A stretch of 54,123 nt of DNA, from assembly GCA_004282875.1 (NCBI GenBank), contig SHLT01000005.1, forward strand, positions 1-54,123. Reading direction: 5' to 3'. The notes under the pieces were generated by a model. The model was given only the letters and a program-made list of their open reading frames with translations. It ran no database searches and was not told where the DNA came from. Position numbers and translations under genes: made by a program. Below are positions 52,660 to 53,691 of this stretch, piece by piece. This stretch comes from Chromatiales bacterium (GTDB lineage Bacteria; Pseudomonadota; Gammaproteobacteria; Steroidobacterales; Woeseiaceae). Position 1 is the stretch's first letter, and each line of letters starts with the position of its first letter.

Positions 52660-52736
52660 CGGGGCATGGCGCAGTCTGGTAGCGCAACTGCTTTGGGAGC
52701 AGTGGGTCGGCGGTTCGAATCCGTCTGCCCCGACCA
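52660..52736 (+). tRNA. tRNA-Pro(TGG)
   Basis: 77 nt including the encoded CCA. Acceptor CGGGGCA pairs with TGCCCCG. The anticodon arm ACTGC/GCAGT encloses TTTGGGA with anticodon TGG at 52694-52696. T arm CGGTTCGAATCCG is normal. It is the first gene of the four-tRNA cluster and lies 29 bp before tRNA-Arg. Confidence 0.97.
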
Positions 52737-52800
52737 GCCAGATTTCCGGTTAGACTTGAACAAATGCGCCCGTAGCTCAACCGGATAGAGCATCGGCCTT

Positions 52801-53445
52801 TAAGTGAGGAGCCTGTGCCGGGAAACAGAACCGGTACAGTGGACTGCACTGTAACGGGGAAACCTTAACAGGTAATGCTGATGGCAATCCCGTGGAAACC
52901 TGTGGACAACCGACGTATGTCGTGCGGTAAGGTCAAGAGATGGCCTTGCACCACACGAAAGACAAAGGTGACCTGGGAGTCCTGAAGGCTCAGATTGATC
53001 TGTTCGAGCAAGGGTTCACTATCTTTGTACCGCTAACCGAGCATAGTCCGTTCGACTTGGTGGCCTACAAAGATGGCGAATTCAGAAGGGTGCAGGTGAA
53101 GTACCGGTCAATGGATCGGTTCGGCAAGGTCGATGTGAAGTTCTCGACCTCGTGGGCCGACCGGAACGGTACGCATACATCGCCGATCGACAAGAGCGAA
53201 GTAGATATCTACTGCGTCTATTGTCCTGACAGCGATGAGTGCTACTATCTGCGCCCGGCGAAATTTGGCTCGAATGCATCGCTGAGGGTAAGGGCACCCA
53301 AGAATGGGCAGCTAAGGAAAGTAAATTTCGCAGCTGACTATCGCAGGGTTCCGTAGAGACTATACGTGCGGCGCCTGAGATGGCGAAGAGATAGTCCAGA
53401 CCACAAACCTGCGAGGGCAGGGCCGCGAAAGCGGTAGTTGGTAAG
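52801..53445 (+). mobile_element. Group I intron (IC3-like) with homing endonuclease gene
   Basis: 645 nt. Exon 1 ends in CCTT, which pairs with the internal guide GAGG (52806-52809) to leave the U.G wobble at the 5' splice site; the intron ends in G (53445). Core pairings visible: P2 GTGCCGG/CCGGTAC (52815-52821/52831-52837); P3 GCAC/GTGC (52846-52849/53366-53369); P4 ACGGG/CCCGT (52854-52858/52889-52893) with GAAACCT and GATGGCAA as in the Azoarcus tRNA-Ile intron; P7 GACTAT/ATAGTC (53358-53363/53391-53396); P8 CGCC/GGCG (53372-53375/53382-53385); and P9 CCGC-GAAA-GCGG (53423-53434). The endonuclease gene fills the P6 region. Self-splicing is expected but not proven. P10 looks weak. Confidence 0.93.
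52940..53356 (+). CDS. Intron-encoded PD-(D/E)XK homing endonuclease (I-Ssp6803I-like)
   Basis: 138 residues, entirely inside the group I intron. It begins HHTKDKGDLGVLKAQIDLFE, then QGFTIFVPLTEHSPFDLVAY with Asp39, and RRVQVKYRS with Gln52 and Lys54: the D-x12-QxK version of the PD-(D/E)XK core. This resembles the tRNA-intron endonuclease I-Ssp6803I rather than LAGLIDADG or GIY-YIG families. A later SEVDIYCVYCPDSDECYYL completes the sheet. It would cut intronless tRNA-Arg genes and so drive intron homing. The TAG stop (53354-53356) ends one base before the P7 strand, so coding sequence and ribozyme core abut. The frame is intact, suggesting recent activity. The ribosome site is weak (AAGG at 52929-52932). 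Confidence 0.88.
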   Translation: MALHHTKDKGDLGVLKAQIDLFEQGFTIFVPLTEHSPFDLVAYKDGEFRRVQVKYRSMDRFGKVDVKFSTSWADRNGTHTSPIDKSEVDIYCVYCPDSDECYYLRPAKFGSNASLRVRAPKNGQLRKVNFAADYRRVP

Positions 53446-53487
53446 CTAAGCCGAGGGTTGCAGGTTCGAGTCCTGCCGGGCGCGCCA

Positions 53488-53615: not shown

Positions 53616-53691
53616 GTGGCTGTAGCTCAGTTGGTAGAGCCCCGGGTTGTGATCCCGGTCGTCGGGGGTTCGAGTCCCCTCGTCCACCCCA
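53616..53691 (+). tRNA. tRNA-His(GTG)
   Basis: 76 nt with encoded CCA; the G at 53615 can serve as the extra G-1 of histidine tRNA. The anticodon arm CCGGG/CCCGG holds TTGTGAT (anticodon GTG at 53649-53651), and the D and T arms are normal with a G.U at 49-65. The acceptor is imperfect: GTGGCTG faces CGTCCAC, giving a C5.U68 mismatch and a U6.G67 wobble. Identity is clear from G-1, C73 and the anticodon. Confidence 0.93.

What the first reader, a model, noticed from the sequence alone, without database searches (positions are those of the whole stretch)
52766..53487. Group I intron splits a tRNA-Arg(UCU) anticodon
A chromosomal tRNA-Arg gene in a gammaproteobacterium is interrupted between anticodon bases 34 and 35 by a 645-nt group I intron with a complete readable core (P1-P4, P7-P9, U.G splice site, terminal G). 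Known bacterial tRNA introns lie in Leu(UAA), fMet, Arg(CCU) and Ile(CAU); I do not know of a described Arg(UCU) case. The position matches the cyanobacterial Leu(UAA) insertion. Reading of AGA/AGG codons would depend on splicing unless another copy exists.
Basis: partly seen in the sequence, partly recalled or inferred. Interest (0 to 1): 0.92.

Follow-up and report, generated by a model that had tools for sequence, protein, structure and literature searches.

The report
Self-splicing intron inside a tRNA gene
A marine bacterium's only detected gene for the tRNA that reads the arginine codon AGA is split by an RNA element that probably cuts itself out and carries a gene for a DNA-cutting enzyme likely to spread it; close copies sit in the same spot in many bacteria and in some phages.

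Summary
Confirmed: window 52766-53487 is a tRNA-Arg(UCU) gene split between anticodon bases 34 and 35 by a 645-nt group I intron. Covariation in 34 short homologues supports the ribozyme core (98.4% of cells paired), although Rfam's group I model misses it at its cut-off. In the family (Woeseiaceae, inferred) 20 of 107 genomes carry the intron signature: 11 with an intact endonuclease, 5 with remnants, 3 with none, 1 incomplete; 40 of 107 show an intact tRNA gene. One MAG holds an empty and an occupied allele. This looks like a homing cycle caught at several stages. A putative group I intron in this tRNA was already reported (Beggiatoa 2013, Thiomargarita 2016), so the site is not new. Apparently new, within my searches: the endonuclease, the breadth (99 of 115 signature loci, several phyla), copies in viral contigs, and related phage cassettes that interrupt a tRNA and carry an intact tRNA-Arg(UCU). 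Splicing and cleavage are inferred.

The parts
52766..52800 (+). 5' exon of tRNA-Arg(UCU), bases 1-34, ending C32 U33 U34
   Evidence: ARAGORN intron mode
52801..53445 (+). group I intron, 645 nt, last base G
53446..53487 (+). 3' exon of tRNA-Arg(UCU), from C35, with CCA
52798..52811 (+). P1: exon C32 U33 U34 (52798-52800) pairs with guide GAG (52809-52811), U.G at the splice site
   Evidence: invariant in 34 of 34 homologues
52813..52839 (+). P2 hairpin (9 pairs)
   Evidence: 9 of 9 pairs change on both sides in the alignment
52844..52849 (+). P3 5' strand, pairs with 53366-53371
   Evidence: 4 of 6 pairs change on both sides
52854..52893 (+). P4 (52854-52859 with 52888-52893), P5 and P5a between
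   Evidence: P4 2 of 6, P5 1 of 2, P5a 2 of 3 pairs change on both sides
52894..52904 (+). 5' strands of P6 and P6a, pairing with 53350-53352 and 53342-53347; the ORF lies in this loop
   Evidence: 2 of 5 pairs change on both sides
52940..53356 (+). homing-endonuclease gene, 138 aa, PDDEXK_5; its last codons make the 3' strands of P6a and P6 and its stop TAG (53354-53356) lies just before P7
   Evidence: Pfam E 2.8e-38; profile match to 2ost E 4.6e-10
53358..53363 (+). P7 5' strand, pairs with 53391-53396
   Evidence: invariant in 34 of 34, so no covariation evidence
53366..53371 (+). P3 3' strand (pseudoknot with P7)
53372..53385 (+). P8 hairpin
   Evidence: 2 of 4 pairs change on both sides
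53391..53396 (+). P7 3' strand
53400..53442 (+). P9.0 (53400-53403 with 53439-53442) enclosing P9 (53408-53421) and P9.1 with GAAA loop (53422-53435)
   Evidence: P9.1 4 of 5 pairs change on both sides, P9.0 0 of 4, P9 not tested
52660..52736 (+). neighbouring tRNA-Pro(UGG), same order at empty sites of relatives
53616..53691 (+). neighbouring tRNA-His(GUG)

Best explanation
A mobile, self-splicing group I intron (cyanobacterial tRNA-intron type, IC3-like by recalled layout) sits in the chromosomal tRNA-Arg(UCU) gene between U34 and C35. After transcription the core pairs U34 with a G in the guide sequence (P1), bound guanosine attacks after U34, the freed U34 attacks after G53445, and the two halves join to a normal tRNA that reads AGA (inferred). 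The intron's PD-(D/E)XK endonuclease cuts intron-less tRNA-Arg(UCU) genes at the anticodon arm, so that repair copies the intron in (homing; inferred). The intron splits the cut site and so protects its own copy (inferred). Where sites are filled the endonuclease decays while the ribozyme is kept, because the tRNA is needed. Shown: anatomy, covariation, site identity, occupied/empty/decayed states. Not shown: splicing, cleavage, transfer.
For: Anatomy and exact tRNA call. Covariation in 34 short homologues: 98.4% of 1969 cells paired, slid controls 34-43%, 29 of 58 pairs with changes on both sides (26 of 53 without the tRNA's own anticodon stem), 0 of 500 shuffles. ORF-less homologue aligns to RF00028 from 1 to 253, below the cut-off. 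Endonuclease: PDDEXK_5 E 2.8e-38; profile to 2ost E 4.6e-10; D39, Q52 and K54 fit the PD-(D/E)XK pattern, K54 invariant in 28 of 28 rows, Q52 replaced by S in some viral rows. Purifying selection on the endonuclease: dN 0.08-0.23 against dS 0.76-2.43 in 10 of 10 comparisons with the window. Sporadic presence at one site with the same neighbours. Intact, remnant and absent endonuclease in 11, 5 and 3 of 19 complete introns of the family. Empty and occupied alleles of one locus in one MAG. Of 24 viral loci with a relative of the endonuclease, 20 have it within 200 nt of a tRNA-Arg(UCU) gene.
Against: No splicing or cleavage data. Rfam RF00028 does not reach its cut-off in the window, the own genome or in any of 18 related loci. 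The endonuclease tree broadly follows the host phyla, which fits long vertical descent with local movement rather than free transfer. dS is near saturation in several pairs. P1 and P7, the most diagnostic helices, do not vary in the alignment and so are not tested by it. The genome is an 86% complete MAG, so a second Arg(UCU) gene cannot be excluded.
Confidence: 0.92

Rival explanations
1. The intron splices, but it is an old vertically inherited resident; the endonuclease is no longer spreading it and the patchy pattern comes from loss.
For: In the endonuclease tree the 4 Omnitrophota rows and the gammaproteobacterial rows form separate parts, the 3 Bacteroidota rows group together (joined by the one Bacillota row and one viral row), and the window sits with 3 Woeseiaceae rows (98/93).
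Against: Purifying selection on intact endonucleases in 10 of 10 comparisons beside decayed ones; empty and occupied alleles with 99.2% (131 nt) and 92.4% (289 nt) flank identity in one MAG; same intron site in viral contigs.
Confidence: 0.25
2. The gene is a dead pseudo-tRNA or an assembly chimera; the insert is not removed and AGA is read by another tRNA.
For: No RNA evidence; the assembly is a MAG of 210 contigs, 86% complete.
Against: The joined exons match uninterrupted genes of 10 relatives over 77 of 77 bases; the 7 family genomes of high quality (at least 90% complete, at most 5% contaminated) that carry the signature show no intact copy by pattern; the core is conserved with compensatory changes; the same split recurs in other assemblies, 99 of 115 genomic loci.
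Confidence: 0.04
3. A protein-spliced (bulge-helix-bulge) intron or another insertion type that merely looks like group I.
For: BHB introns also lie in tRNA anticodon loops (established knowledge).
Against: P1-P9 core with P3/P7 pseudoknot and covariation; RF00028 aligns end to end to the ORF-less homologue, below its cut-off. I did not test for a BHB motif.
Confidence: 0.02

Closest known systems
Synechocystis tRNA-fMet group I intron with I-Ssp6803I (PD-(D/E)XK)
   Same: [quoted passage not shown] The window's protein matches 2ost by profile, E 4.6e-10; that 2ost is I-Ssp6803I is recalled
   Different: Different tRNA (Arg UCU), different bacterial phylum; by single-sequence search the two proteins are only weakly similar (E 0.005)
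Putative group I introns in tRNA-Arg-TCT of Beggiatoa (MacGregor 2013, not read) and Ca. Thiomargarita nelsonii (Flood 2016, PMC4853749, passages read)
   Same: Same tRNA, same class of bacteria
   Different: No structure, position or endonuclease is given in the passages read. A Thiomargarita locus that I fetched (L198) is split two bases later, after U36, so theirs may be another insertion
Cyanobacterial and plastid tRNA-Leu(UAA) intron (IC3)
   Same: Insertion between bases 34 and 35 and a very similar core layout (recalled; a Leu(UAA) intron with the same signature and site in a viral contig, L212)
   Different: Different tRNA; the known cyanobacterial Leu introns usually lack an endonuclease (recalled)
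tRNA-Arg(CCU) and tRNA-Ile(CAU) introns of alpha- and betaproteobacteria
   Same: Group I introns in proteobacterial tRNA anticodon loops (recalled; Ile2 cases in Acidovorax and Burkholderia named in passages of PMC8450103)
   Different: Other tRNAs; L138 and phage L237 in my set read as Arg(CCU), split after base 36
SegB, a free-standing endonuclease beside phage tRNA genes (PMC13096335, passages read)
   Same: Homing endonuclease that cuts within tRNA genes
   Different: SegB is not PD-(D/E)XK (GIY-YIG family) and is not inside an intron

Membership tests
Group I introns | P1 with U.G at the 5' splice site | tested here: met
   34 of 34 sequences
Group I introns | P3-P8/P4-P6 core with P3/P7 pseudoknot, supported by covariation | tested here: met
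   (structure defined from one member, so compare with the slid controls: 98.4% against 34-43%; P7 itself never varies)
Group I introns | G at the 3' end of the intron | tested here: met
   also 107 of 107 loci with accepted borders, but G was part of the rule used to find the border
Group I introns | Reaches the gathering score of Rfam RF00028 | tested here: not met
   the best related match is 24.7 bits against 50. This is a property of the database model, not of the class: the same model gave no significant archaeal hits in a study where subtype models found 39 archaeal group I introns (PMC6125680, passages read)
Group I introns | GTP-dependent self-splicing | not testable with these tools
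   needs a bench test
PD-(D/E)XK homing endonucleases (I-Ssp6803I type) | Sequence family PDDEXK_5 and catalytic D...QxK | tested here: met
   which residues are catalytic in I-Ssp6803I is recalled; no structure was predicted
PD-(D/E)XK homing endonucleases (I-Ssp6803I type) | Encoded inside the element it mobilises | tested here: met
   ORF 52940-53356 within 52801-53445
PD-(D/E)XK homing endonucleases (I-Ssp6803I type) | Cuts the empty site and not the filled one | not testable with these tools
   only indirect: 20 of 24 viral relatives lie by tRNA-Arg(UCU)
Bulge-helix-bulge tRNA introns | BHB motif at the exon-intron junctions | not tested
   set aside on the group I core instead

The most novel reading that the evidence does not exclude
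One lineage of PD-(D/E)XK endonucleases is specialised on the anticodon arm of tRNA-Arg(UCU), an essential gene, and survives there in more than one way: inside a self-splicing intron (bacterial chromosomes and some phages), as a neighbour of the tRNA gene in phages, and as ribozyme-free phage cassettes that break the target tRNA but bring an intact tRNA-Arg(UCU) as a replacement. The intron and the spare tRNA would be two answers to the same problem, how to sit in a gene the cell cannot lose. Phages could also carry the intron between bacteria. (Probability lowered from 0.5 on re-checking: the evidence for co-conversion in the cassettes is weaker than I first wrote.)
Probability: 0.45. Interest if true: 0.72.

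Novelty: new member of a known kind. Interest (0 to 1): 0.52.

Why it matters
If it splices as inferred, AGA codons in these cells are read through a ribozyme's work, while the two standard searches that I ran (ARAGORN in normal mode, Rfam) report this tRNA as missing. The family offers a natural series at one fixed site: empty, filled with an intact endonuclease, filled with a decaying one, filled with none. That makes the homing-cycle model testable in free-living bacteria. Group I introns in phage tRNA genes go beyond a 2014 review that knew none (PMC3984707, passages), and the phage cassettes with a spare tRNA suggest a second way for a selfish gene to live in an essential one.

Tried and rejected
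Rfam at gathering and in E-value mode on the window and RF00028 on G000: no group I match; replaced by a homologue-based test. One search was badly designed: its gap of 15-22 bases excludes this tRNA's gap of 14, so its 1 of 107 is void; redone. ARAGORN's isotype labels in intron mode are unreliable when the 3' splice border shifts by a base: one search labelled 77 of 128 as Arg(tct) and 15 as Ser(gct); after re-reading borders by the rule CTT|...G|CTAA, 107 of 128 are Arg(UCU). Dropped before that count: 12 loci without an ARAGORN call (several cut at a locus edge) and 9 that do not fit the rule (L131, L132, L138, L159, L177, L198, L209, L212, L214). For the structure test I used 34 of the 46 introns of at most 300 nt, chosen by hand to leave out near-duplicates. 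Exact patterns for the empty sites of the phage cassettes found nothing in viral contigs (0 matches each). A similarity search with the joined outer halves of one cassette found uninterrupted tRNA-Arg genes, among them two Synechococcus phages at 89%, but 600 phage records match, as any tRNA-Arg would, so this says only that the halves make a tRNA-Arg. Structure prediction of the endonuclease was asked four times and never ran, as the machine was busy; a sequence profile against the PDB was used instead. The hit in G019 is not a tRNA, so intact genes are in 40 of 107, not 41.

Considered and rejected: that the Arg(UCU) site is unreported (Flood 2016 and the 2013 paper that it cites speak against it); a prophage-borne tRNA (of the 20 empty sites fetched, all have tRNA-Pro and 19 tRNA-His as neighbours, as here).

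Full report
What is there. The window's tRNA-Arg(UCU) gene runs from 52766 to 53487. ARAGORN in intron mode gives a 77-base tRNA-Arg(tct) with a 645-nt intron inserted between tRNA bases 34 and 35; in its normal mode it reports only the neighbouring tRNA-Pro, tRNA-His and tRNA-Lys. The 13 helices of a group I core that I named pair fully in the window. The exons are ordinary: joined, they match uninterrupted genes of 10 relatives over 77 of 77 bases.

The P6 loop holds a reading frame of 138 codons, 52940-53356. It is a PDDEXK_5 protein (Pfam E 2.8e-38). Alone it reaches the solved structure 2ost, which I recall as I-Ssp6803I, only weakly (E 0.005), but a profile of 28 relatives reaches it at E 4.6e-10. 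D39, Q52 and K54 fit the PD-(D/E)XK pattern; K54 is invariant in 28 of 28 rows, D39 nearly so, and Q52 is S in some viral rows. The last codons of the gene form the 3' strands of P6a and P6, and its stop codon (53354-53356) lies between P6 and P7, so protein and ribozyme share bases. Its fold was not predicted, as the machine was busy.

Is it a group I intron? Rfam's group I model does not reach its gathering score in the window, in the whole genome or in any of 18 related loci, and has no match on the 781-base segment even at E up to 10. In E-value mode an ORF-less homologue from the same family aligns to the model from first to last position at 24.7 bits against a cut-off of 50, E 1.9e-4. 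I therefore tested the structure directly: 34 short homologues with their exons (A1), 58 pairs written down from one member, 5 of them the tRNA's own anticodon stem. 98.4% of 1969 cells form standard pairs, against 34-43% when partners are slid by 1-3 columns; 29 of 58 pairs show changes on both sides (26 of 53 without the anticodon stem); 0 of 500 shuffles reach the observed value on any of five measures. P7, P1 and 3 of 4 pairs of P9.0 do not vary and so say nothing either way; P2 (9 of 9), P3 (4 of 6), P8 (2 of 4) and P9.1 (4 of 5) carry most of the signal. The P1 layout (CUU with GAG, U.G at the splice site) and the 34/35 site resemble the cyanobacterial tRNA-Leu intron as I recall it.

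How widespread. After correcting splice borders, 107 of these 128 loci are tRNA-Arg(UCU) genes split at CTT|...G|CTAA: 99 of 115 genomic and 8 of 13 viral. The viral labels are IMG/VR's and were not checked. The hosts of the 115, by record title, are mostly Gammaproteobacteria and include Bacillota, Bacteroidota, Omnitrophota and Chloroflexota. The window's endonuclease matches at least 110 residues in 26 of the 107 introns and shorter stretches in 11; 70 show no match. In an even draw of 369 genomes of the class, 15 carry the signature and 9 carry a relative of the endonuclease, 3 of them weak; both counts include the window's own genome.

The family. The signature is in 20 of 107 genomes and an intact Arg(UCU) gene, by pattern, in 40 of 107 (one false hit removed). 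Only G083 has both; the remaining genomes show neither, through gaps or sequence variants, so both counts are lower bounds. The 7 signature-bearing genomes in the high-quality set (at least 90% complete, at most 5% contaminated; 7 of 45) show no intact copy by pattern, which argues that the split gene is in use. Of the 20, 11 have an open endonuclease frame of 135 codons from HHTK on, 5 have remnants, 3 have none and 1 (G102) was too incomplete for the script (its 3' part looks like a remnant). dN is 0.08-0.23 and dS 0.76-2.43 against the window in 10 of 10 comparisons (several dS values are near saturation). In G083 an empty copy (C5) and an occupied copy (C72) share flanks at 99.2% over 131 nt and 92.4% over 289 nt: two alleles of one locus, from mixed strains or close species in one MAG. 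I fetched the 20 best empty sites: 20 of 20 have the same tRNA-Pro neighbour and 19 of 20 the tRNA-His.

AGA decoding. In the window's own genome no second Arg(UCU) gene was found. A tRNA-Arg(CCU), read by eye and cut by a contig end, is present (L029) and would read AGG. In 50 long stop-to-stop frames of the window, some of which may not be genes, AGA makes up 58 of 1939 arginine codons.

Phages. 6 of 16 viral loci of the first pattern are short introns in tRNA-Arg(UCU) at the same site; the other 10 are not in a tRNA by the sequence that follows them and were not examined further. A named phage, Microcoleus phage My-WqHQDG, is annotated with a 286-nt tRNA-Arg, which reads as Arg(CCU) with an insert; an uncultured 484-kb phage record holds a split Arg(UCU) (L238). 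Relatives of the endonuclease occur in 24 viral loci: 19 within 200 nt of an intact tRNA-Arg(UCU), 1 by an intron-split one, 1 by a tRNA-Arg(CCU), 3 by neither. Several of these contigs are near copies of one another. Two named phages show the same neighbourhood: Synechococcus phage Sf-FR1 and Acinetobacter phage Herod.

Cassettes with a spare tRNA. In L001-L008 the 5' half of another tRNA ends at ...TTCT (8 of 8) and is followed by an intact tRNA-Arg(UCU), then the endonuclease, then a 3' half. In the three that I read at that point, an 11-base inverted repeat flanks the intact tRNA (L001, L002; one mismatch in L005). In 2 of 8 (L002, L005) the outer halves fit each other as tRNA-Arg(UCU), with 5 of 5 anticodon-stem pairs; in 3 of 8 (L003, L004, L007, near copies) the acceptor ends fit but only 3 of 5 anticodon-stem pairs do; in 3 of 8 (L001, L006, L008) the 3' half next to the endonuclease does not fit the acceptor end, while ARAGORN finds a fitting one farther on. 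Joined, the outer halves of L005 match tRNA-Arg genes of many phages. A second arrangement, in L010-L016 and L019, has the endonuclease first and the intact tRNA-Arg(UCU) overlapping or abutting its end; outer 5' halves are seen in 8 of 8 and 3' halves, within the 90 nt printed, in 3 of 8. No group I match at Rfam's cut-off was found in the loci scanned, but that model also misses the true introns, so absence of a ribozyme there is only an impression.

Phylogeny. The endonuclease tree (38 rows) puts the window with three Woeseiaceae rows (98/93) and broadly separates phyla, with viral rows outside and one among the Bacteroidota-Bacillota rows. This is evidence against frequent recent transfer across phyla, and it leaves room for local movement.

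Literature. Ten searches of the held library brought up one paper that reports this split tRNA in bacteria: Flood et al. 2016 (PMC4853749, passages), which cites MacGregor et al. 2013 (not looked up, not read; a sister paper, PMC3697557, is not held). Hausner et al. 2014 (PMC3984707, passages) state that the phage introns observed to that date all lay in protein genes. A 2025 database paper (PMC11835236, passages) does not mention bacterial tRNA-Arg in the passages seen. Two further papers on sulfur bacteria (PMC5728499, PMC4914600, passages) say nothing of tRNA introns in the passages seen. Most subscription papers are not in that library, so 'not in print' is not claimed.

Verdict. It is a new, endonuclease-bearing member of a known kind in a tRNA already reported as interrupted in sulfur bacteria. 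Its value lies in the natural series of states in one family and in the link to phages.

Noticed in passing
L001-L008, L010-L016, L019 (viral contigs): Cassettes of a related endonuclease plus an intact tRNA-Arg(UCU) that seem inserted into the anticodon loop of another tRNA, in L002, L005 and L016 itself tRNA-Arg(UCU), without an evident ribozyme.
   Followed up: partly
G083: L241 (C5, empty) and L230 (C72, occupied): Empty and intron-filled alleles of the same tRNA-Arg(UCU) locus in one MAG.
   Followed up: yes
L238 (LR756508.1, 484-kb phage) 1062-1330 and 1461-1712: Two split tRNAs in one phage record: one reads as Lys(UUU), one as Arg(UCU), both split between bases 34 and 35 by my reading.
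   Followed up: partly
L132, L159, L177 (Chloroflexota); L209, L214 (viral): Signature introns in tRNAs that by eye read as threonine-type anticodons, so the family may have moved to other tRNAs.
   Followed up: no
L198 (Thiomargarita MAG): tRNA-Arg(UCU) split after base 36 instead of 34, a second insertion point in the same anticodon.
   Followed up: no
L237 (Microcoleus phage My-WqHQDG) 1013-1298: A phage tRNA-Arg annotated as 286 nt long; the sequence reads as Arg(CCU) with a group I-like insert.
   Followed up: partly
L033, L037-L041, L043, L045-L047 (viral contigs): The same P7 signature at sites that are not tRNA genes by the sequence that follows.
   Followed up: no
G352, C1:4946-4991 and C2:3054199-3054244: Two copies of the P7 signature in one genome.
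   Followed up: no
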